The position numbers were made by a program, and so were the translations under genes. From positions 1-64,000 of the forward strand of contig PLAE01000162.1 of assembly GCA_003134035.1 (NCBI GenBank): a DNA stretch of 64,000 bases, given 5' to 3'. The notes beneath the pieces are model-generated. The model did no database searches and was not told the DNA's origin. It was given only the letters and a program-made list of their open reading frames with translations. The DNA comes from Candidatus Velthaea versatilis (GTDB lineage Bacteria > Vulcanimicrobiota > Vulcanimicrobiia > Vulcanimicrobiales > Vulcanimicrobiaceae). Positions 43,952 through 56,844 of the stretch are shown piece by piece; within the stretch, counting starts at the first letter, position 1, and every line of letters starts with the position of its first letter.

Positions 43952-44359
43952 CTACAGCGTGTTCAGCAGCGCGACTCCGAGCTGCTCAGCAATGCCGCGA
44001 AGCCTGAGGTCATTGGACGCCAATCGTGCTCCGGTTCCGAGCGATACGGCGACATAGGCGGCATCGTATGCGGTCAGCCCGTGGGAGTGCGCCAAACGAA
44101 ACTCGTGCCCCAGCGCTTCCGGGCCTCGCAGTTGCGGTCGCAACGCGCGGAGCGCATCGAGCGCTTCGCGCGCTGATTCCAGATCGATCCGATCCCGCCG
44201 CAGCGCCATGAGCAATCCATTTTGCACTTCATAGGCCCACAGCACCGGAACGACGAGTTGATCGTCAAGCGCAGCGGCAACGGCAGCTCGCGCGAACACG
44301 GAATCTTCGTCAGGCAGCACAGCGGCAAGTGCCGTCGAGGCGTCGATGACGACGCTCAC
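43952..44359 (-). CDS. PIN-domain toxin (VapC type)
   Basis: 135 residues from GTG 44359, which overlaps the antitoxin stop (GTGA). Acidic PIN residues are all present: D6 (V-V-I-D-A-S-T-A-L), E44 (A-Y-E-V-Q-N), D99 (L-T-A-Y-D-A-A-Y-V-A) and D117 (L-A-S-N-D). PIN toxins cut RNA, often tRNA or rRNA, with Mg or Mn. It sits next to the tRNA-like repeat and would help stabilise an island. Confidence 0.9.
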   Translation of the reverse strand: MSVVIDASTALAAVLPDEDSVFARAAVAAALDDQLVVPVLWAYEVQNGLLMALRRDRIDLESAREALDALRALRPQLRGPEALGHEFRLAHSHGLTAYDAAYVAVSLGTGARLASNDLRLRGIAEQLGVALLNTL

Positions 44360-44622
44360 GAAACCCGGTGGCCCGCGTCGATGAGCTCGCGCCACGTTTC
44401 GCCGGAGCGCAAGATCGTCTGGCCGCCGTTGCGTTCGCGAATGCGCTCGCGAACCGCGTCGATTTGTGCCAAGATCTCGCTTGGCGTCGTCGTCGCAGGC
44501 GATACGAGTGCGACCGGCCGATTGTTGCGAGCGATGATGATCCGTTCGCCCCGTTCGACGCGCTCGATCAGCCGGGAGAGATGCATCTTTGCCTCGGCGA
44601 TGTTATAAACCTGGTCATCCAT
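44356..44622 (-). CDS. Phd/YefM-type antitoxin
   Basis: 88 residues from ATG 44622. N terminus is the Phd fold (Y-N-I-A-E-A-K-M-H-L-S-R-L-I-E-R-V-E-R-G-E-R-I-I-I-A-R-N-N-R-P-V-A, written in parts), which binds DNA and represses the operon. The C-terminal half would wrap the toxin. It precedes the PIN gene with a 4-nt overlap. Confidence 0.88.
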   Translation of the reverse strand: MDDQVYNIAEAKMHLSRLIERVERGERIIIARNNRPVALVSPATTTPSEILAQIDAVRERIRERNGGQTILRSGETWRELIDAGHRVS

Positions 44623-44691
44623 CCAGCCTAGTCTAGTCGATTGATCATCTTTCGGCAAGCGAAACGGCATGTATCCGCGGGACAGGCGCGA

Positions 44692-46065
44692 TTACACCGC
44701 ACCGATCTCACTCACCGCACCGCCATGGTCGGCCAGCCACGCACTGCGCCGGGCGAACAGCGGCGGCACGAGTTCGTTGACGCGATCGATGAGTTCGGCG
44801 AGATCGGCGGTTTGCAGAACGCCGCCGTCGACGACGATGCGTCCGCCGACCATGGTGAGGTCGACGTCGGCACCTTGGACGGCGTGCACCAGGTTGTGAT
44901 GCACGTTGAGGTCCGGCCCGGTCAGGAGCGGCGTCATGCGCGGCGTCTTCGTGCGCACGGCAATGAGGTCGGCCGCTTTGCCGGCTTCGAGCGAACCGAT
45001 CGACGCGCCGAGTCCGAGGGCTCGCGCCCCGCTCGAGGTCGCCATCTCGCAGATCGACCACGCATCGAGCGCGGCGGCGTCGAGCTGCGAGAATTTCGCG
45101 AGCAGCGACGCGGTCTTCATCTCCTCGAAGAGGTCGAGATTGTTGTTCTCTTTTTCGCCGTCGGTGCCCAAGCCGACGGCGATGCCCGCATCGAGCAACG
45201 CTTGCACGGGCGCGGCGCCGCTGGCCAGCTTCATATTGCTGATCGGATTGTGGGCAACGCCGACACCGCGCTCGGCCAAGACGGAAATCTCGTCCGGCCA
45301 GAGCCAGCAGCAGTGCGCCAGCAGCACGTGATGCGCGTCGAGCACGCCGAAGCGTTCCAGTGCGCGCACGGGCCGAACCCCGTAGCGGCGCAGCGTCTCC
45401 TCGACGTCGAAACGGCTTTCGTTGCTATGGGTGTGCAGCGGGACGCCGTAGTGCCGGCTCAGCGCGGCTGCGCGCTGCAACGCGGCGGGAACGGCGTAAA
45501 AGAGGTGCTCGAGGCCGACCCAAACGTTGATCCGCCCGCGTTCGGCGCCGTGCCACGCCGCGATGAGCGCTTCGTTCCCGTCGTACGTCTCGAAGTAGTC
45601 GTGGTCGGGATGCTCGGCCACATATGGCACGAGAACCGCACGAATGCCGAGGTCGCGCGCGGCGCGCGCGCTGCCGTCCATGAATCGCCACATATCGACG
45701 ATGGTCGTCGTGCCGGACAGCAACGCCTCGGCGTAACACAGGCGCGACGCGGCTTCGGCATCCTCGGGACGCAGTACGCGATGCATCGGATCGATGAACC
45801 GTTGCAGCCATTCCCAAACGGGAAGACCCTCGGCCGTGCCGCGCAGCAGCCCCGAGTGACAGTGGGCGTTGATCAACCCGGGCATCAACAAGCGGTCACG
45901 CAAATGGCGAACCGGCGCATCCGGATGCGCGGCGATCAGCCGGGCGGCATCGTCGACCGCTCCGATCGTGCCGTCCGCTTCGACGAGCACCGCACCGTCG
46001 ACGAGCAGGCTTCGCCGGGCCGGCACCGGCAGAACGAGATCGGCGCGCAGCAGTTGGCGTTGCAT
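44692..46065 (-). CDS. Amidohydrolase of the SAH/MTA deaminase and chlorohydrolase group
   Basis: 457 residues from ATG 46065, with AAGGA seven bases before. Metal-site motifs: N-A-H-C-H (H68, H70), H-T-H-S-N-E-S, H-C-C-W, and G-T-D-G-E-K-E-N-N-N with the catalytic Asp. The fold is a TIM barrel with a small beta sandwich made from both ends (A-D-L-I-A-V-R-T-K-T-P). The group deaminates adenosine derivatives, guanine, or dechlorinates and deaminates triazines. The N-N-N after the Asp is unusual for classic SAH deaminases. It diverges from the oxygenase genes and likely belongs to the same pathway. Confidence 0.86.
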   Translation of the reverse strand: MQRQLLRADLVLPVPARRSLLVDGAVLVEADGTIGAVDDAARLIAAHPDAPVRHLRDRLLMPGLINAHCHSGLLRGTAEGLPVWEWLQRFIDPMHRVLRPEDAEAASRLCYAEALLSGTTTIVDMWRFMDGSARAARDLGIRAVLVPYVAEHPDHDYFETYDGNEALIAAWHGAERGRINVWVGLEHLFYAVPAALQRAAALSRHYGVPLHTHSNESRFDVEETLRRYGVRPVRALERFGVLDAHHVLLAHCCWLWPDEISVLAERGVGVAHNPISNMKLASGAAPVQALLDAGIAVGLGTDGEKENNNLDLFEEMKTASLLAKFSQLDAAALDAWSICEMATSSGARALGLGASIGSLEAGKAADLIAVRTKTPRMTPLLTGPDLNVHHNLVHAVQGADVDLTMVGGRIVVDGGVLQTADLAELIDRVNELVPPLFARRSAWLADHGGAVSEIGAV

Positions 46066-46165: not shown

Positions 46166-47077
46166 GTGCGGCGGCACTCGCACATCTATGATCCTCGGGT
46201 GTTGGTAGAAGCCGCCGACCGGCCGGAATCCGTGCTCTGGGATGATTGGCACGTCGTCGCCGAAATCACGACCCTCGAGCAGTTCGGCCGGATGACGTCG
46301 ACGCTGTTCGAGCGCGAACTGCTCATTACGCGCGAAGATAAGGCCGTTCACGTCGCGTACGCCGACGGCTCGGGTCGAATCGCCTCGACGCTCAAATACG
46401 GCTACGTCTGGGCTTCGCTGGGCGCCGGGGATCGCGAACTCGTCGACTTTCCCGAGGCGGCGGAGACCGACCGGCACGTGCTGACCGTCGGGTCGCTCGG
46501 CATCCGCACGTCGGGGCTGCGGCTGGTCGAAAACTTCATCGACGTGGCGCACTTCCCGTTCGTTCATACCGGTTACTTGGGCGCCGAACCCGACACGGAA
46601 GTCCAGCCGTATACGATCCGGGTCAGCGCAGACGAGGTGTGGGTTGAGAGCGGCTCCTGCACCCAACCCATGGCGTCCGCGGCCGCGCCGGGCGCCGCGC
46701 AAATCGGCTATGTCTTTCGCGTCTTGCGCCCGTATACGGTCGTGCTCTACAAGACGAACACGCACGCTCCGACGCGCCAAGATCTGCTGCTGCTCATGGT
46801 GCAGCCCGTCAGCCAGGAACGCTGTATCGCGCACGTCCTCGCATTGGTCTTAAATTTTGAGGACGCCCGCGACATCCGCTCGTTTCAGCGTTTGATCACG
46901 GGTCAAGACAAGCCGATCCTCGAAAACCAGCGGCCGTCACGGCTGCCGCTCGATCCGCGCAGCGAACTTCCGGTTCGCGCCGACGCGGCGGGGACCGCCT
47001 ATCGCCGTTGGCTTGTCGAACGCGGTGTCAGCTACGGCGCCATCCCGCCAATCCGCGCGGTCGCGTTCGTCGGTTAG
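46166..47077 (+). CDS. Oxygenase with mononuclear-iron domain but no Rieske cluster
   Basis: 303 residues from GTG 46166 (TTG 46157 and GTG 46199 are alternatives; ribosome site weak). The start resembles vanillate-demethylase-type oxygenases (W-D-D-W-H-V-V-A-E, L-F-E-R-E-L-L-I-T-R). Where the Rieske C-x-H and C-x-x-H should be there is only a short link (H-V-A-Y-A-D-G-S-G-R-I-A-S) to Y-G-Y-V-W-A-S-L-G. The catalytic domain is complete: V-E-N-F-I-D-V-A-H-F-P-F-V-H (N123, D126, H129, H134) and D-K-P-I-L-E-N-Q-R-P. Electrons must come from another protein; the next gene supplies a Rieske domain. It would hydroxylate or demethylate a small molecule. Confidence 0.8.
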   Translation: MRRHSHIYDPRVLVEAADRPESVLWDDWHVVAEITTLEQFGRMTSTLFERELLITREDKAVHVAYADGSGRIASTLKYGYVWASLGAGDRELVDFPEAAETDRHVLTVGSLGIRTSGLRLVENFIDVAHFPFVHTGYLGAEPDTEVQPYTIRVSADEVWVESGSCTQPMASAAAPGAAQIGYVFRVLRPYTVVLYKTNTHAPTRQDLLLLMVQPVSQERCIAHVLALVLNFEDARDIRSFQRLITGQDKPILENQRPSRLPLDPRSELPVRADAAGTAYRRWLVERGVSYGAIPPIRAVAFVG

Positions 47078-47120
47078 CATTCGCGGTTTGACGACGACTG
47101 TGGCTGCCGCCAAGGCGCAA

Positions 47121-47837
47121 ATGGAACGAACGAATGTCCCCGCCGCAGACGGCTGGGTCGCTGCCGTGCGAAGTGCGGAACTCGTGGGGCGGCACGTCGC
47201 GATCGCGCGGCTCGCCGACACCGACATCGCGCTCTGGCGCGATGCCGACGGCCGGGTCAACGCCTGGGAGAATCGCTGTCCGCATCGCGGCATGCGCTTG
47301 AGTTTGGGCAGCAACACCGGCACGACGCTCATCTGCCGCTATCACGGCTGGCGTTTCGATTCGGGCACTGGAGCCTGCAGCTTCATCCCCGCGCACCCAC
47401 GCCAGATCGCGCCCAAAGCGGCCGCCGTACGAACGTACGCGAGCGCTGAGAAGTACGGATTCGTGTGGGTCGGCTTCGCGAAGGCGACCGGCCAGCCGGA
47501 CATTGCGGACACCGTCCCGGAATCGCCGCTGACCTTTCGCAGTCTCACATTCCATGCGCCGCTGGCGGCCGTGCATGATGCCTTGATGCACGAAACGGGC
47601 GCCGTCGCGCTCGGTGCCACGGCTATCCGCGTGCAACTCCGGTTTTACGACACCGAGCTGTCCGCCGTCTATCTCGTTGCGGCGCAGTCCGCATTCGCCA
47701 CCCTCGTGCACGGCTTCGCGGCGGAAGCGGTCCCCGAATCGGCGCGGCTGCCGCTGCTGCGCGCGCAGGCCGAGCATCTCAAGACACTGCGTAAAACGAT
47801 CGTGGCCCAAGACTACGCACTGACCGGACGGGCTTAA
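47121..47837 (+). CDS. Rieske [2Fe-2S] protein, partner of the cluster-less oxygenase
   Basis: 238 residues from ATG 47121 with AAGG just before (TTG 47088 would add 11). Rieske ligands are C53/H55 (C-P-H-R-G) and C72/H75 (C-R-Y-H-G-W). After the Rieske domain and Y-G-F-V-W-V-G-F, the sequence keeps about 110 residues of the oxygenase fold (S-P-L-T-F-R-S-L-T-F-H) but has no H-x4-H iron site. So it can hold the cluster but not the active-site iron. It most likely pairs with the gene 44 bp upstream to make one working oxygenase. Confidence 0.85.
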   Translation: MERTNVPAADGWVAAVRSAELVGRHVAIARLADTDIALWRDADGRVNAWENRCPHRGMRLSLGSNTGTTLICRYHGWRFDSGTGACSFIPAHPRQIAPKAAAVRTYASAEKYGFVWVGFAKATGQPDIADTVPESPLTFRSLTFHAPLAAVHDALMHETGAVALGATAIRVQLRFYDTELSAVYLVAAQSAFATLVHGFAAEAVPESARLPLLRAQAEHLKTLRKTIVAQDYALTGRA

Positions 47838-49100: not shown

Positions 49101-49757
49101 ATGCCCTTGAACACCGACGCGCCGGCGGTCGAACTGTACGAGTACGAGTTGAGTGCCGACTCGTATAAAGCACGGCTGCTCCTGAGCATCCTTGGCATGC
49201 CCTACACGCCGCGCCTCGTTGAGTTCTACCCGGCCCGGGAACATCGGTCAGACTGGTTTCTTGCGCTCAATCCGCGCGGCGAGTTGCCGGTGCTCGTGGA
49301 CGGCGACGTCACCATCGACGACGCCCAACGCGTCCTCGTCCACCTGGCGACCGCGCACGATCCCAGTGGAAACTGGTATCCGCGCGGCGATCCGGCGGAT
49401 ATCGACAAGCTGTCGATGTGGCTTGCGTTTGCCGCTGCGCTGACGAAGACATGCGGCGCCGCGCGCCTACACGACGCGCTATTGCACCACCACATCGACG
49501 TGGCGACATGCCGCTCCGACGCACTCGAGCTTTTGCGCAGCCTCGACGAGCATCTGTGGTTCGGCGAGCAAGAAGGTCAAGCGTGGCTGCTCCCGCGCAC
49601 CGAGCCGACCGTCGCCGACATTGCCTGTTTTCCCGATGTCGCGCTGGCCGAAGAGGGCGGCATCGCGCTCGACGAGTTCGGTGCGATCCGTCGCTGGGGC
49701 GATCGGATCCGTGCGATCTCAGGATTCATCACGATGCCCGGGATCTTTCCGCGTTAA
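49101..49757 (+). CDS. Glutathione S-transferase-like protein
   Basis: 218 residues. N-terminal thioredoxin-like half: V-E-L-Y-E-Y-E-L-S-A-D-S-Y-K-A-R-L-L-L-S, then F-L-A-L-N-P-R-G-E-L-P-V-L-V-D-G with the conserved cis-proline P-V-L. C-terminal helical half with P-T-V-A-D-I-A-C-F-P and a closing W-G-D-R-I. A Ser near residue 18-21 is a possible catalytic residue. GSTs of catabolic clusters open rings, remove halogens or isomerise products. Confidence 0.85.
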   Translation: MPLNTDAPAVELYEYELSADSYKARLLLSILGMPYTPRLVEFYPAREHRSDWFLALNPRGELPVLVDGDVTIDDAQRVLVHLATAHDPSGNWYPRGDPADIDKLSMWLAFAAALTKTCGAARLHDALLHHHIDVATCRSDALELLRSLDEHLWFGEQEGQAWLLPRTEPTVADIACFPDVALAEEGGIALDEFGAIRRWGDRIRAISGFITMPGIFPR

Positions 49758-49799: not shown

Positions 49800-50942
49800 C
49801 TACGGCGGCGGCAACGCCGCATGTAGCTGCGATTCGATGCCTTCGGCACGCAGAGCCACCAGCCAGACCCGCAGTCGTGCATAAAACGCCCGCCGGTCGG
49901 CCGATGCGAGACTCAAGGCGTTCGAAAATTCCGCGTTTGCGATGCTTTCACGACAGAAGGCTTCGCGGATAGCGCCGGCTTGCGTGCGGACCAACTGCGT
50001 CGAAAGATCGGCCAAGACCAGCATTTGGAGATCGAAAACCGCGCGATTGAGATTCGCTTCCCAACGTGCGGGCCGGCTCGCAGCTTGAACGTAGCGGCGA
50101 AAGCAGTGCTCTCCGAAGACGGACAGACAATTCGCGAGCGAGCGCTCGAAGACCGCCGCCATCTCGCTGGTTCGCTGCTGGTCCGCGTTGCGATTGGAAC
50201 GCATGAAGTCGTTGAGCAGCGTCTTGACCGGGGGTCGGTAGTCGGCCATGACCGAGCGCAGCGCGAAGAACCGCAACGCGAGCTCCTCATGCTTCATGCG
50301 CAGGTCGGCGTCCGCTTTCCCGACGGCGGACAGCCACGCCGGCGTCCGAACCAGATCGTGCAGCAGCTCATTGAACGGACCGCGAAACACGCAGTTACGA
50401 AGTTCTTGGTCGTTGAGCGGCATGCCGCCGGTGCTCAGGCGTTCGAACAGCTCGAAACGCAGCGCGGCCGGCGAGGCCGCGGAGATCACGGCGCAGCGCA
50501 GCGTGCGACCAAGGATCGCTCGCGACTGCCGGGCAGGCAACTCCCGCCAGCGCTTGCCGTTCAATTCCGGCAAAAGCTCGAGCCGCTGCAGCGCGTACCG
50601 GCCCGCGTGGTACTGTTCGACCGCGCGCAGCCGCTGCTGACCATCGACGACGACTTTGATCCCGTCGTCGTCTTCGGCGAAGTAGAGCGTCGGGATCGGA
50701 ATGTTGAGCACGATCGATTCGATGAGCTTCGACTGCCGGTCGCGGCCCCAGATGTTCTGTCGCTGGAACTTGGGGTGGACCACGAGCGTTTTTGACGCGA
50801 TCTCGCCCAGCAGCGCGCCGATAGGGACTTCGTCCGACGTGCTGATCACGCCGCGGCCAAGTTTCACGTCGTCCCACTCGGACGGCCCGTCGCCATGCTC
50901 TTGGGGCGCTTGGAACGCCGCCGCTGAATTGGAAACATTCAT
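49800..50942 (-). CDS. DUF262 (GmrS-N/ParB-like) domain protein
   Basis: 380 residues. The N-terminal 150 residues carry the DUF262 marks: P-K-F-Q-R-Q-N-I-W-G-R-D-R-Q-S-K-L-I-E-S-I-V, I-P-T-L-Y-F-A-E and V-V-V-D-G-Q-Q-R-L. This ParB/Srx-like fold hydrolyses nucleotides in the GmrSD modification-dependent restriction enzyme. The DUF1524 HNH nuclease half of GmrSD is not seen; the rest is helical. It may be a stand-alone defence protein placed among catabolic genes. Confidence 0.82.
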   Translation of the reverse strand: MNVSNSAAAFQAPQEHGDGPSEWDDVKLGRGVISTSDEVPIGALLGEIASKTLVVHPKFQRQNIWGRDRQSKLIESIVLNIPIPTLYFAEDDDGIKVVVDGQQRLRAVEQYHAGRYALQRLELLPELNGKRWRELPARQSRAILGRTLRCAVISAASPAALRFELFERLSTGGMPLNDQELRNCVFRGPFNELLHDLVRTPAWLSAVGKADADLRMKHEELALRFFALRSVMADYRPPVKTLLNDFMRSNRNADQQRTSEMAAVFERSLANCLSVFGEHCFRRYVQAASRPARWEANLNRAVFDLQMLVLADLSTQLVRTQAGAIREAFCRESIANAEFSNALSLASADRRAFYARLRVWLVALRAEGIESQLHAALPPP

Positions 50943-51447: not shown

Positions 51448-52875
51448 TTGAATGACGTAGCTTCGTTCCTGTCCCACATAAGCGATGTTCCGACGATAAC
51501 GGATGCCGCAACCGTCCGCCGGCGTAGTCTCGATATGTCGACCTTCTTCAGCCCGACCATGCGCCGGGAAGCGGCCGAGAAGTTTGCCGAGCTCATCGTC
51601 AGGCCGCGCGACCGAGCCGACGTGATCGCCATCGCGCGCGCGGCGGCGATCGCGCGGATGCCGCTCATGATGCGCGGAGCGGGCACGTGCAACTTCGGCC
51701 AAGGCATCCCGCTGCGCGGCGGGGCCATCGTCGACATGACCGGACTCTCCGAAGTTCTCTGGGCGCGCAACGGTCACGTTCGCGCTCAGGCCGGTGCTCG
51801 GTTGATCGCCATTGACGAATTCACGCGGCCCAGCGGATGGGAGCTGCGCATCCATCCGTCGACGAAACGTGCCTCGACGATCGCCGGCTTCATCGCCGGC
51901 GGCCACGCCGGCATCGGGAGCGTCACGTACGGCATCCTGCGCGACCGCGGCAACATCGTTGCGATCGAGGCCATTTCCGTTGAGGAGGAACCGCGCAGCG
52001 TGGAACTGCGCGGCGACGACGTCAACTTAATGCATCACGCCTACGGAACCAACGGGATCATTACCGAAATCGAAATGCCGCTGGCGTTCGCTTGGCCCTG
52101 GATCGAAACCGTCGTGAATTTTCCCGACTTCATGGCCGGCGCGCGCTTTTCGTACGAGTTGGCGAGCAGCGACGGGATCATCAAGAAAGTCATCACGGTC
52201 GACGCTGCCCCGAATTGGGAATACATGGCGGCGATGCGGCCCTTCGGCCGCGCCGGCTGGACCATGGTGCGCAGCATGGTCGCCGAGCAATCGCTGGACG
52301 CATTTCGGTCAGTCGTCGCGGCGCACGGCGGCGAGACGACCGTCGAAGCCCCCGAAGGCGCGGGGCCGTACCGCGCACCCCTGTGGGAATTCGCCTGGGG
52401 ACACACGATGTTCCAGATCAGTAAGGAGCGTCCGGGCCTCATCGGTAACACCGGCTTGTATCTCGATCCGGATGTGCTCACGGCAGTCGAGCGAAGCTAT
52501 CGCCGCTTTGCAAGCTTGGGCGCGATGCATTTCGACCTCAAGCGCTACAACGGGCAAATCGGCTTCCAAGGCTCGCCGTTCTACGCCTTTACCAACGAAG
52601 CGCAGATGGCCGATGTCATTCGTGGGATGGCGGCGGACGGCGCGATGGTCGCCAACAACCACACGTTCATCGGCCGCAAAAACGGCGTGATCGCCGTGAA
52701 CGACGGCGAAGCGGAGTTCAAGGCCAAGATGGATCCCCACGGCCTGATGAATCCGGGCAAAGCCGCATCGGAAGCGCCCCCGCCGGAGGTCCATGGCAGC
52801 GCCGGAGCCGCCCTGCCGACAACGGGCTGGGCGTACGAATCGCGCGGCGCGTCCGCGGTCACGGTTCCCTCATGA
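51448..52875 (+). CDS. FAD-binding PCMH-type oxidoreductase
   Basis: 475 residues from TTG 51448, chosen for the GGGAG eight bases before and the family start. PCMH FAD domain: V-R-P-R-D-R-A-D-V-I-A-I-A-R-A-A, M-R-G-A-G-T-C-N-F-G-Q, S-T-I-A-G-F-I-A-G-G-H-A-G-I-G-S and Y-G-T-N-G-I-I-T-E-I-E. The end, M-D-P-H-G-L-M-N-P-G-K, is the typical FAD-oxidase C-terminal motif. It would oxidise a hydroxyl or amine compound such as a hydroxy acid, sugar or alkaloid. First gene of the five-gene operon; overlaps the next by 4 nt. Confidence 0.85.
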   Translation: MNDVASFLSHISDVPTITDAATVRRRSLDMSTFFSPTMRREAAEKFAELIVRPRDRADVIAIARAAAIARMPLMMRGAGTCNFGQGIPLRGGAIVDMTGLSEVLWARNGHVRAQAGARLIAIDEFTRPSGWELRIHPSTKRASTIAGFIAGGHAGIGSVTYGILRDRGNIVAIEAISVEEEPRSVELRGDDVNLMHHAYGTNGIITEIEMPLAFAWPWIETVVNFPDFMAGARFSYELASSDGIIKKVITVDAAPNWEYMAAMRPFGRAGWTMVRSMVAEQSLDAFRSVVAAHGGETTVEAPEGAGPYRAPLWEFAWGHTMFQISKERPGLIGNTGLYLDPDVLTAVERSYRRFASLGAMHFDLKRYNGQIGFQGSPFYAFTNEAQMADVIRGMAADGAMVANNHTFIGRKNGVIAVNDGEAEFKAKMDPHGLMNPGKAASEAPPPEVHGSAGAALPTTGWAYESRGASAVTVPS

Positions 52876-53876
52876 GGTTCACTCGCCGCCGCTGGCTGAG
52901 CGGACTCGCATCAAGCTCGCTGGCTGCGCCCTTCATCGTGCGCAACGCGGGCGCCACCGGTTTGACGAAGGTCGTGTATCAGACGGCGTGGGTACCCGAA
53001 CCCGACGAGGGCGGCCTGTATCAAGCGCTGACGGCGGGCATCTACACCTCGCACGGACTGGACGTCGAAGTCCGCGCCGGCGGACCGCAGCTCAACGCGG
53101 TCGAACAGTTTTTGGCCGGGAAGGCCGATTTCATCACCATCGACAGCTTCCGGGCAGCCGCGATGGCGGCACAGGGCTTGCCCGGCGTCGCGGTCGCCGC
53201 GTTCTATCAAAAACCGCCGCACGTGATTCTCTCGCACCCGCAGGCCGGAAACGACACGCTGGCGGACCTACGGGGTAAGCCGATCCTCATCTCCGATGGT
53301 GACCGCCAGTCGTTTTGGATGTGGCTCAAGGCAAAGTATGGCTACAGCGACGATCAAGCGCGGCCGTACACGTTCAACATGGCGCCGTTTCTGGTCGACA
53401 AAAACCTGAGCATGCAAGGCTTCATCACCAGCGAGCCCTACCTGGCGCACCAAGCCGGTGTCGATCCGGTCGTCCACGTTTTGGCGGATCACGGTTATCT
53501 TGCGTATTACGACATCATCCTGGCCGCACCGCGCATGATCGCCGAGCGCAAAGACGTCGTTGCGCGCTTCGTCGACGCGACCATTAAAGGCTGGCAGAGC
53601 TATCTCCACGGCGATCCCAAGCCCGCCAACGATGCAATCAAAACGGGGAATCCCGGCACGACCGATGACGCGATCGCGTATGCGCGCGGCGCGATGAAGC
53701 GGTATGGGCTCTTTGATTCGGACGACGTGAAACGCGGCGGCCTCGGCGCGATGAGCGATGCAAAGTGGAACGGCATCTACCGGTCGCTGGCCGCGGTCGG
53801 AGCGCTGCCGAAGGGCGTCGACATCCGCAAAGCCTATACGCTCGAGTTCGTCAACAAGCGCGTCGGCGCGGCGTAG
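52872..53876 (+). CDS. NMT1/THI5-type ABC transporter substrate-binding protein
   Basis: 334 residues. A twin-arginine-like signal (F-T-R-R-R-W-L-S-G-L) precedes a mature periplasmic protein: Y-Q-T-A-W-V-P-E-P-D-E-G-G-L-Y-Q-A, G-L-D-V-E-V-R-A-G-G-P, D-F-I-T-I-D-S-F-R-A and P-Y-L-A-H-Q-A-G-V-D-P. The NMT1 group brings in pyrimidines, riboflavin precursors, taurine, nitrate or aromatic acids. The ligand cannot be stated. ATGA overlap with the flavoenzyme. Confidence 0.9.
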   Translation: MRFTRRRWLSGLASSSLAAPFIVRNAGATGLTKVVYQTAWVPEPDEGGLYQALTAGIYTSHGLDVEVRAGGPQLNAVEQFLAGKADFITIDSFRAAAMAAQGLPGVAVAAFYQKPPHVILSHPQAGNDTLADLRGKPILISDGDRQSFWMWLKAKYGYSDDQARPYTFNMAPFLVDKNLSMQGFITSEPYLAHQAGVDPVVHVLADHGYLAYYDIILAAPRMIAERKDVVARFVDATIKGWQSYLHGDPKPANDAIKTGNPGTTDDAIAYARGAMKRYGLFDSDDVKRGGLGAMSDAKWNGIYRSLAAVGALPKGVDIRKAYTLEFVNKRVGAA

Positions 53877-53880
53877 TCGC

Positions 53881-54681
53881 GTGCTGCTCGAACGCAACGA
53901 TTCGCCCCCATCGGGAGCACTGCTGAGGCTGCGCGGCGTCACCAAACGGTACACGAGCGGAACCGTTGCGCTGCGCGACGTGGACCTCGTGATCGGACGG
54001 CACCAGTTCGTCTCGCTGCTCGGCTCGTCGGGCTGCGGAAAGAGCACGTTGCTCAAGCTCATCTCCGGCTTGGGTCAACCGTCCGCGGGCACACTGGATT
54101 GGCCGGCGGCTCCGGGCGGCGCACGCCGGCCGGAACTGTCGTTCGTCTTTCAGGAACCGACGCTCTTACCGTGGGCTACGGCGCTGCGCAACGTCGCGCT
54201 GCCGCTGCGCCTAGCGGGGTTGGACAGGGGAGAGATCGAGGAGCGGGCGCGGCGGGCGTTGGGAACCGTGGGTCTGGCCGGGTTCGAGCGCGCCTATCCG
54301 CGCGAGTTGTCCGGCGGGATGAAAATGCGCGTTTCGATCGCGCGCGCGCTCGTCACCCGCCCGTCGATTTTGCTGATGGACGAACCGTTTGCCGCGCTCG
54401 ACGAGATCGCGCGGACACGGCTCAACGACGATCTGCTCGCGCTGTGGCAGGAGCAGCGGTTCACCATCGTGTTCGTGACCCACTCGGTGTTCGAGAGCGT
54501 CTACCTCGCGCAGCGGATCGTCGTGCTGGCAGCCCGTCCAGGCCGCGTCGCCGCCGACCTCGACGTCGATGAGGCCTATCCGCGCTCGCCCGCTTATCGC
54601 ACGTCGGCAATCTATGCCAAGCACTGCGAGCGCGTTTCGGCGGCGCTCGAGTCGACCATGACGGCGGAGTCCGCGCGATGA
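53881..54681 (+). CDS. ABC transporter ATP-binding protein (NitT/TauT/NMT1 family)
   Basis: 266 residues from GTG 53881, 4 nt after the previous stop. Walker A G-S-S-G-C-G-K-S-T (48-56), Q-loop F-Q-E-P-T-L-L-P-W, ABC signature L-S-G-G-M-K-M-R-V, Walker B I-L-L-M-D-E-P-F-A-A-L-D-E and switch His (T-H-S). It powers import with the binding protein upstream and permease downstream. Confidence 0.95.
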   Translation: MLLERNDSPPSGALLRLRGVTKRYTSGTVALRDVDLVIGRHQFVSLLGSSGCGKSTLLKLISGLGQPSAGTLDWPAAPGGARRPELSFVFQEPTLLPWATALRNVALPLRLAGLDRGEIEERARRALGTVGLAGFERAYPRELSGGMKMRVSIARALVTRPSILLMDEPFAALDEIARTRLNDDLLALWQEQRFTIVFVTHSVFESVYLAQRIVVLAARPGRVAADLDVDEAYPRSPAYRTSAIYAKHCERVSAALESTMTAESAR

Positions 54682-55496
54682 TCCGCGCCAAATCTCCGCC
54701 GGGTTCGCGGCTGCCGGAGAACGTAGCCGCCGTCGCCGCGCCGGCTAGTCTTGGCATCGCGCTGCTCGTGTTCTGGGAGATCGTCGTGCGGGTGCGCGGA
54801 ATCCCGCCCTACGTTTTGCCGCCGCCGTCGCTGATCGGCGCGGCGCTCGTGCGTGACTGGAGCCTGCTTTCCGGATCGCTCTGGACGACGCTTTCGATCA
54901 CGCTCGAGGCACTGGGCTTGGCCGTGGTGTTCGGGCTGGCGTTTTCCGTCCTCTTCGCTCAGTCGCGCTGGATGGAGCGCGCGTTCTTCCCGTACGCGGT
55001 GATCTTGCAAGTCACGCCGATCGTCGCCATCGCTCCGCTCATCATCATTTGGGCCAACAACACGCTGATCGCGTTGCTGTTCTGCGCCTGGCTGGTCGCA
55101 TTTTTTCCGATTCTCTCCAATACGACGGTCGGATTGAATTCGGCTGACCACAATCTGCTCGACTTGTTCGCGCTCTACGGTGCGAACCGCTGGCAAACGC
55201 TGCGCTATCTGCGGCTTCCCGCAGCGCTGCCCTATTTTCTCTCCGGCCTGCGAATCTCGGGCGGACTGGCGCTCATCGGCGCGGTCGTCGCGGAATTCGT
55301 GGCGGGAACCGGCGGAACGAAGTCCGGGCTCGCTTTCCGCATTCTTGAAGCCGGTAATCAGCTCAATATCCCGCGCATGTTTGCCGCGCTGACCCTCATC
55401 TCGCTGTGTGGGGTGGCAATGTTCTTGTGCCTCACGATCGTCTCGCACCTCGCCTTGCGGCATTGGCACGAGAGCGCCGTCCAAAGAGAAAGCTGA
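54678..55496 (+). CDS. ABC transporter permease (BPD type)
   Basis: 272 residues with about six membrane helices (A-S-L-G-I-A-L-L-V-F-W-E-I-V-V at the start, W-L-V-A-F-F-P-I-L-S-N in the middle). The EAA-like loop reads A-N-R-W-Q-T-L-R-Y-L-R-L-P-A-A-L-P-Y-F. The gene overlaps the ATPase by 4 nt. A single permease gene implies a homodimer. Confidence 0.95.
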   Translation: MIRAKSPPGSRLPENVAAVAAPASLGIALLVFWEIVVRVRGIPPYVLPPPSLIGAALVRDWSLLSGSLWTTLSITLEALGLAVVFGLAFSVLFAQSRWMERAFFPYAVILQVTPIVAIAPLIIIWANNTLIALLFCAWLVAFFPILSNTTVGLNSADHNLLDLFALYGANRWQTLRYLRLPAALPYFLSGLRISGGLALIGAVVAEFVAGTGGTKSGLAFRILEAGNQLNIPRMFAALTLISLCGVAMFLCLTIVSHLALRHWHESAVQRES

Positions 55497-55497
55497 T

Positions 55498-56844
55498 ATG
55501 CACGCCGGGTTTTTTCCGCTGCCGGACCGGCCGCGGTTCGCACTGCGCAACCTCACGGCGCCCGGATCGCTCCTGCCCAAGCACGCGGTCACGGGCGACC
55601 TGTGCCGGATCGATCTGCTCGTAGAGAACGGGCGGATCGCGGCGCTCGAGCCGAGCGGTACGCTGCCCGACGCGCTCGGTCCGGATCTCAACGGCTCGAT
55701 GGTGCTGCCGGGTCTGATCGACGTTCACACCCACCTCGACAAAGGCCACATTTGGCCGCGCCGGCCCAATCCCAGCGGCGACAAGACGGGCGCCGCCCGC
55801 GCGACGGCCGACGACCGCGCAGCGCGCTGGACGCCCGAAGACGTTCGGCGGCGCATGGATTTCGGGCTCGCCAGCGCCTACGCCCACGGCGTGGTCGCAA
55901 TCCGCACGCACCTCGATTCGCTCGCGCCGCAAGCGGCGATCTCGTTTCCGGTGTTTCGCGAGGCTCGCGACCGTTGGGCCGGCCGAATCGATCTCCAGGC
56001 GTCGTCGATCGCGACGCTCGACCTGTTTTTGCGTGACGAGGGCCGGGAGCTAGCGGACATCGTCGCGGAATCAGGCGGACAGCTGGGATGCGTGACGGCG
56101 TTTGCCGATATCGCCAACGTGCCGCTGCCGCCCGAATTCGATCGAGCGCTCACTACGCTCTTCGCACTCGCGCGCGAACGCGACCTCGATGTCGATCTGC
56201 ACGTCGATGAGACGGGCGACAAAGAGGTGCTGACGCTCATCGCGATTGCCCAGATCGCATTGCGCGTGAAGTTTCGCGGGAAGATCCTGTGCGGCCACTG
56301 TTGTTCGCTGGCGCTCCAGACCGACGAACGGATCGCGCGGACGCTTGACGCCTGTTTCGAGGCCGGGATCTCGATTGTCAGCCTGCCGACGGTCAACATG
56401 TTTCTGCAAAGCCGGCAGCCCGGCATCACCCCGCGTTGGCGCGGCGTACCGCCGGTCCAGGAAATGAAGGCCCGCGGTCTGCGCGTCGCCATCGCCGGCG
56501 ACAACGCGCGCGACCCGTTTTACGCCTACGGGGACCACGATATGCTCGACACGTTCACACAGGCGGTGAAGATTCTCCAGCTCGACTATCCTGTGGGCGA
56601 TTGGATCGACGCCGTCACCGCCAATCCGGCCGCGATCATGGGCTTGACCGATCGTGGAACGCTCCGGGCCGGCGGGCCGGCTGATCTCATTGTGCTGCGC
56701 GCGCGAAACTATTCCGAGCTGTTGGCCCGCCACCAGGAGGATCGCGTCGTGTTGCGCGCCGGGCGCGCCATCGACACCACCTTGCCCGATTATCGGGAGC
56801 TCGACGACTTGATGGCCGAACTCCCGGCCGCGGCGCGGCACTGA
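55498..56844 (+). CDS. Cytosine-deaminase-like amidohydrolase
   Basis: 448 residues from ATG 55498, one base after the permease stop. Metal site: D-V-H-T-H-L-D-K-G-H (H77, H79), a middle H-V-D-E-T, G-H-C-C-S-L, and A-G-D-N-A-R-D-P-F-Y-A-Y-G-D-H-D-M with the catalytic Asp, as in CodA-type cytosine/isoguanine deaminases. The enzyme removes amino groups from ring amidines or opens cyclic amides. As part of the import operon it likely acts on the imported compound or a product of it. The substrate may differ from cytosine. Confidence 0.88.
   Translation: MHAGFFPLPDRPRFALRNLTAPGSLLPKHAVTGDLCRIDLLVENGRIAALEPSGTLPDALGPDLNGSMVLPGLIDVHTHLDKGHIWPRRPNPSGDKTGAARATADDRAARWTPEDVRRRMDFGLASAYAHGVVAIRTHLDSLAPQAAISFPVFREARDRWAGRIDLQASSIATLDLFLRDEGRELADIVAESGGQLGCVTAFADIANVPLPPEFDRALTTLFALARERDLDVDLHVDETGDKEVLTLIAIAQIALRVKFRGKILCGHCCSLALQTDERIARTLDACFEAGISIVSLPTVNMFLQSRQPGITPRWRGVPPVQEMKARGLRVAIAGDNARDPFYAYGDHDMLDTFTQAVKILQLDYPVGDWIDAVTANPAAIMGLTDRGTLRAGGPADLIVLRARNYSELLARHQEDRVVLRAGRAIDTTLPDYRELDDLMAELPAAARH

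What the first reader, a model, noticed from the sequence alone, without database searches (positions are those of the whole stretch)
46166..47837. Rieske oxygenase split into two complementary defective genes
The first gene keeps the mononuclear-iron ligands (D126, H129, H134) but has lost the Rieske cysteines and histidines. The second, 44 bp downstream, has a perfect Rieske site (C53/H55, C72/H75) but no iron-site histidines. Each lacks what the other has. The caffeine demethylase NdmC, which relies on a Rieske domain carried by NdmD, is the precedent I know for division of this kind. Here the donor is itself a truncated oxygenase, which looks like duplication followed by complementary loss.
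Basis: partly seen in the sequence, partly recalled or inferred. Interest (0 to 1): 0.76.

Follow-up and report, generated by a model that had tools for sequence, protein, structure and literature searches.

The report
Split Rieske oxygenase, NdmCDE-like, Rieske half unfused
Two neighbouring genes each encode half of one iron oxygenase (one keeps the iron site, the other the electron-delivering Rieske cluster), and the same pair plus a helper protein recurs in many bacteria as an apparently unfused version of the caffeine-pathway enzyme NdmCDE.

Summary
Gene 1 (46166-47077) is a VanA_C-type Rieske-oxygenase catalytic subunit with H129/H134/D248 intact but the Rieske domain collapsed. Gene 2 (47121-47837) has a complete Rieske domain (C53/H55/C72/H75) on a shrunken C-terminal domain with no iron-site motif.

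The pair is not a local accident. A second copy lies elsewhere in this genome. In 22 genomes and 7 plasmid records, each Rieske-less subunit has a Rieske half on the same contig (31 of 33 loci in the same stretch), with a GST-like gene. Each half forms one clade. In 12 of 31 cases the Rieske half is fused to reductase or ferredoxin domains, as in NdmD; here it is free.

So this is a split oxygenase resembling NdmC + NdmD's N-terminal module + NdmE. Purine genes (and sometimes formaldehyde dehydrogenase) lie near relatives, suggesting N-methylpurine demethylation. Substrate, complex geometry and electron donor are untested. NdmCDE is the published precedent; the free Rieske half as a degenerate oxygenase paralogue is the new part.

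The parts
46166..47077 (+). Gene 1: Rieske-less catalytic subunit (NdmC-like), 303 aa; iron ligands H129, H134, D248; bridging D126
46235..46423 (+). Collapsed Rieske domain within gene 1 (residues 24-86): flanking strands kept, cluster-binding part deleted
   Evidence: hhalign prob 95.9, E 5e-9 against Rieske-half profile; domain 1; strands in model
47121..47837 (+). Gene 2: Rieske half, 238 aa; corresponds to the N-terminal ~230 aa of NdmD-like reductases
47154..47480 (+). Rieske domain of gene 2 (C53, H55, C72, H75, bridging Y74)
47520..47834 (+). Shrunken catalytic-type domain of gene 2 (residues 134-238), no iron-site motif
   Evidence: hhalign 38.0 vs shuffled maximum 18.8; AF2/Foldseek
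49101..49757 (+). GST-like partner (NdmE-like), 218 aa, present with every split pair examined
44692..46062 (-). Divergent TRZ/ATZ-type amidohydrolase (deaminase family), also divergent next to the second copy on C156
47834..48838 (-). 2-oxoglutarate/Fe(II) oxygenase, related to one in Klebsiella and Pseudomonas NdmCDE-like clusters; possible pathway member

Best explanation
Genes 1 and 2 encode the two halves of one Rieske non-heme iron oxygenase that arose by duplication and complementary loss. Gene 1 binds the mononuclear iron and the substrate; gene 2 supplies the Rieske [2Fe-2S] cluster in trans, through the D126 (gene 1) / Y74 (gene 2) interface; the GST-like protein at 49101-49757 holds the complex together, as proposed for NdmE. 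It works like NdmC + NdmD (N-terminal Rieske module) + NdmE but without fusion to a reductase, so electrons must come from a separately encoded donor. Most likely reaction: oxidative N-demethylation (formaldehyde release) of an N-methylated purine or related N-heterocycle. Shown: sequence anatomy, homology, gene linkage. Inferred: trans electron transfer, GST role, complex, type of reaction. Guessed: the exact substrate.
For: Complementary motifs. 37 of 37 split catalytic subunits keep D-x2-H-x4-H and none has a Rieske motif; all 31 partner halves match the Rieske-half profile, 30 of 31 with the strict C-x-HRG...C-x-YHG motif, and none has the iron motif. Rieske half within the same stretch in 31 of 33 loci and on the same contig in the other two; GST gene in all 31. 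Second copy in the same genome. Split catalytic subunits one clade (100/99), Rieske halves one clade (100/99). Gene 2 aligns along 95% of its length to the N-terminus of 588-aa NdmD-like proteins. NdmC without Rieske cluster, Rieske domain split off to NdmD, and NdmE required: PMC4408171. Neighbours in related clusters: xanthine dehydrogenase, XdhC, guanine deaminase, BMP-type transporters, glutathione-dependent formaldehyde dehydrogenase in 5 loci.
Against: No model of the complex. No dedicated reductase in the cluster, and in the ~90% complete genome only one PF00970 reductase, in a di-iron monooxygenase cluster, and no PF14759 reductase. The window has no xanthine dehydrogenase or formaldehyde dehydrogenase match among the markers used, so the purine link rests on relatives. 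Gene 2 and the GST gene are separated by a reverse-strand gene here.
Confidence: 0.75

Rival explanations
1. The split oxygenase is real but hydroxylates a ring position of a purine or pyrimidine (as HpxD-type oxygenases do) or acts on another N-heterocycle; it is not an N-demethylase.
For: Full-length relatives include proteins annotated HpxD, and HpxO lies in the Pseudomonas clusters; the window carries deaminase-type amidohydrolases and an NMT1-type transporter rather than xanthine dehydrogenase.
Against: The characterised relative of this split architecture is an N7-demethylase; formaldehyde dehydrogenase genes sit in five related clusters.
Confidence: 0.2
2. Gene 2 is an ordinary Rieske ferredoxin that serves several enzymes, and gene 1 is a separate oxygenase that happens to lie beside it.
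For: Rieske ferredoxins feeding oxygenases are common; gene 2's Rieske domain also matches small Rieske ferredoxins in the PDB.
Against: Best matches are oxygenase Rieske domains (SxtT 1.3e-23 vs about 4e-6 for ferredoxins); gene 2 has a shrunken catalytic-type domain; gene 1 relatives lack a Rieske centre of their own, and each half is one clade with constant linkage.
Confidence: 0.04
3. The two genes are decaying remnants of a broken oxygenase operon.
For: Each lacks half of the canonical motifs.
Against: Motifs conserved across 37 and 31 homologues from 22 genomes and 7 plasmids; two diverged intact copies here (56% and 42% identical).
Confidence: 0.01

Closest known systems
NdmCDE, N7-demethylase complex of Pseudomonas putida CBB5 (PMC4408171)
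   Same: Catalytic subunit without a Rieske cluster, Rieske cluster supplied by another polypeptide, GST-like third protein; purine context
   Different: In NdmD the Rieske module is fused to a flavin/ferredoxin reductase; here it is a free 238-aa protein with no reductase nearby; substrate unknown
ndmCDE-like clusters in Klebsiella, Pseudomonas, Sinorhizobium plasmids
   Same: Catalytic subunit 41-47% identical and GST 47-55% identical to the window proteins; Rieske half 29-34% over the shared N-terminal part
   Different: Fused Rieske-reductase; Sinorhizobium has two catalytic paralogues per Rieske-reductase
Rhizobium/Shinella plasmid clusters: Rieske protein, oxygenase alpha, GST, amidohydrolase, BMP transporter
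   Same: Free Rieske half, catalytic half, GST, amidohydrolase
   Different: Rieske half first in the operon; a more distant amidohydrolase; a BMP-type transporter instead of the window's NMT1-type
Full-length Rieske oxygenases SxtT/GxtA, NdmA/NdmB, HpxD
   Same: Same folds and domain homology
   Different: Both metal centres in one chain

Membership tests
Rieske non-heme iron oxygenase superfamily | 2-His-1-Asp iron site in a VanA_C-type catalytic domain | tested here: met
   Gene 1: H129, H134, D248
Rieske non-heme iron oxygenase superfamily | Rieske [2Fe-2S] motif C-x-H...C-x2-H | tested here: met
   Gene 2 only
Canonical oxygenase alpha subunit | Both centres in one polypeptide | tested here: not met
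   Gene 1 lacks the Rieske motif, gene 2 the iron motif
NdmCDE N7-demethylase | Catalytic subunit without a Rieske cluster | tested here: met
NdmCDE N7-demethylase | Extra Rieske domain fused to the reductase (NdmD) | tested here: not met
   Gene 2 ends at 238 aa; no reductase in the cluster
NdmCDE N7-demethylase | GST-like NdmE partner encoded nearby | tested here: met
   49101-49757; alignment A6
NdmCDE N7-demethylase | Common ancestry with NdmCDE proteins | tested here: inconclusive
   One clade with Klebsiella/Pseudomonas/Sinorhizobium clusters of the kind the literature calls ndmCDE homologues; CBB5 sequences not held
NdmCDE N7-demethylase | N7-demethylation of 7-methylxanthine | not testable with these tools
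   needs an assay
Rieske ferredoxin of three-component systems | Small single-domain protein serving an oxygenase that has its own Rieske centre | tested here: not met
   Two domains, and the partner has no Rieske centre

The most novel reading that the evidence does not exclude
A widespread, largely uncharacterised class of hetero-oligomeric Rieske oxygenases in which the two metal centres sit on two complementary degenerate paralogues with a GST scaffold, able to use a separately encoded electron donor; NdmCDE is a derived branch in which the Rieske paralogue was later fused to a reductase, which would explain the extra cluster and extra domain of NdmD.
Probability: 0.6. Interest if true: 0.68.

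Novelty: new variant of a known kind. Interest (0 to 1): 0.57.

Why it matters
Canonical Rieske oxygenases pass electrons between subunits that each carry both centres. Here the donor and acceptor roles are separated onto different paralogues, so donor and acceptor sites can be mutated independently. It suggests how NdmD came by its extra Rieske cluster, gives a simpler system for the unsolved NdmCDE complex (PMC13237722 says its structure is unsolved), and points to an uncharacterised purine-related pathway in rhizobia and soil bacteria.

Tried and rejected
Viral contig scan: no relative. Literature searches for 'split Rieske', for 7-methylguanine with Rieske, and for separately encoded Rieske and catalytic domains: nothing. 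Loss of the glutathione-binding Ser in the GST as evidence for a purely structural role: the window protein has Asp-Ala there, but other members keep Glu-Ser or Asp-Ser, so not used. Deducing the amidohydrolase substrate from NCBIfam: no model reaches its cut-off. Dedicated reductase in the genome: not found. Pseudogene and ferredoxin readings rejected as stated under rivals.

Full report
1. Observation. Gene 1 (46166-47077) and gene 2 (47121-47837) are both open, 43 bp apart, on the + strand. Gene 1 matches VanA_C (3.2e-21) and not the Rieske domain; gene 2 matches the Rieske domain (2e-20, residues 12-94) and no catalytic domain. Against solved structures both find the same proteins: SxtT at 1.4e-21 for gene 1, covering the C-terminal part 112-333, and SxtT at 1.3e-23 for gene 2, covering the N-terminal part 23-122. 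One correction: D126 corresponds to SxtT Asp161, which with Tyr76 bridges the Rieske cluster and the iron across the subunit interface; the ligands are His164, His169 and Asp280 (PMC7293229), that is H129, H134 and D248 here. Tyr76 corresponds to gene 2 Y74. D126 is invariant in nine aligned gene-1 sequences and Y74 in eight aligned gene-2 sequences; D-x2-H-x4-H is present in 37 of 37 split catalytic subunits and C-x-HRG...C-x-YHG in 30 of 31 Rieske halves. The two bridging residues are thus divided between the two proteins and conserved.

2. Each half is a reduced copy of a whole oxygenase. A profile of Rieske halves aligns with the N-terminal part of the catalytic-half profile (prob 95.9, E 5e-9), the cluster-binding residues falling in a deletion. 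The C-terminal domain of the Rieske halves scores 38.0 against the catalytic domain profile; 100 column-shuffled profiles reach at most 18.8. AlphaFold2 models from shallow alignments have moderate confidence (mean pLDDT 61 and 69). Foldseek finds full-length Rieske oxygenases first for both with probability 1.00, but TM-scores are only about 0.45 and rmsd 8-12 A, so this supports fold and homology, not geometry. For gene 2 only Rieske fragments of outside oxygenases were in the alignment, so its C-terminal domain was not modelled on catalytic domains.

3. The arrangement is conserved. The same genome has a second set on contig C156: the same divergent amidohydrolase, catalytic half (56% identical), GST, Rieske half (42% identical). 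A Rhodospirillales MAG (L004) has catalytic half, Rieske half, GST and guanine deaminase, with xanthine dehydrogenase and XdhC a few kb away. Among genomes sampled, split catalytic subunits occur in 1 of 149 of the window's phylum (only this one), 7 of 385 of the class of L004's genome (an eighth match is full-length) and 15 of 399 of a sample of its phylum (two further matches are full-length). I examined 33 loci from 22 genomes and 7 plasmid records: 31 have a Rieske half in the same stretch and all 31 have a GST gene; in the other two (L047, L081) the Rieske half lies on the same contig, about 12 and 7 kb away. So 'homologues routinely alone' is not the case. Rarity in the window's own phylum suggests lateral acquisition (inference).

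4. Free versus fused. Of 31 Rieske halves, 19 are free and 12 are fused to reductase or ferredoxin domains (two of these broken by frameshifts in the deposited plasmids). Intermediates exist: L084 has a free half with a separate reductase gene in the cluster, L079 a half fused to a Fer2 ferredoxin domain without a recognised flavin domain. Rooted on full-length oxygenases, the other lineages are free and the fused forms lie within one supported subclade (98/93) that also holds the window's free forms; about three changes are needed, so free-first with more than one fusion is favoured but not proven. The window proteins are nearest to the C156 copy, then L004, then the Sinorhizobium type.

5. 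Function. NdmC lacks a Rieske cluster, NdmD carries an extra one, and the GST-like NdmE is required; [quoted passage not shown] NdmE is proposed to be structural and the NdmCDE complex is structurally unsolved (PMC13237722). In canonical enzymes the Rieske cluster is about 12 A from the iron of the neighbouring subunit (PMC12445004); division onto two subunits is compatible with that. Related clusters contain BMP-type transporters, xanthine dehydrogenase, guanine deaminase, NCS2 permeases and, in five loci, glutathione-dependent formaldehyde dehydrogenase. I infer oxidative N-demethylation of an N-methylated purine; 7-methylguanine or 7-methylxanthine would fit the deaminases, but that is a guess. 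The window's own neighbours (amidohydrolase, 2OG/Fe(II) oxygenase, NMT1-type transporter, second amidohydrolase) indicate an N-heterocycle but not which.

6. Electron donor. No reductase is near the pair. In the ~90% complete genome only one PF00970 reductase was found, in a di-iron monooxygenase cluster, no PF14759 reductase, and five Fer2 matches. The donor is open and is the weakest step of the mechanism.

7. Verdict. The system is a variant of the NdmCDE type: it works like NdmCDE, but it is not filed as NdmCDE because the defining fusion is absent and the activity is untested.

Noticed in passing
L019 (G000 contig C156) 1-2725: Second, diverged copy of the whole set in the same genome, with the GST gene between the catalytic half and the Rieske half.
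   Followed up: yes
L079 6107-7417; L084 6051-9070: Apparent intermediates: Rieske half fused to a Fer2 ferredoxin domain only (L079), and free Rieske half with a separate reductase gene in the cluster (L084).
   Followed up: partly
L021 8977-10785, L070, L072, L077: Two tandem Rieske-less catalytic paralogues served by a single Rieske-reductase, perhaps for two methyl positions or substrates.
   Followed up: no
L085 6835-7821, L086 6843-7910: Full-length oxygenases near the split family in the tree, beside BMP-type transporter genes; candidates for the pre-split state.
   Followed up: partly
window 49803-50942 (-): Lone GmrSD_N (DUF262) domain protein inside the catabolic region.
   Followed up: no
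window 43952-44670 (-): PIN-domain toxin-like gene with a Phd-like antitoxin-type gene (VapBC-like pair) next to the amidohydrolase; the antitoxin reading is from sequence appearance only.
   Followed up: no
window 51460-56844 (+): FAD-linked oxidase, NMT1-type ABC transporter and a second amidohydrolase (Amidohydro_3): probable N-heterocycle uptake and breakdown operon.
   Followed up: partly
L024 10856-12614: NdmD-like gene of P. putida pPp1290 split into three reading frames in the deposited record, while the P. fulva copy is intact.
   Followed up: no
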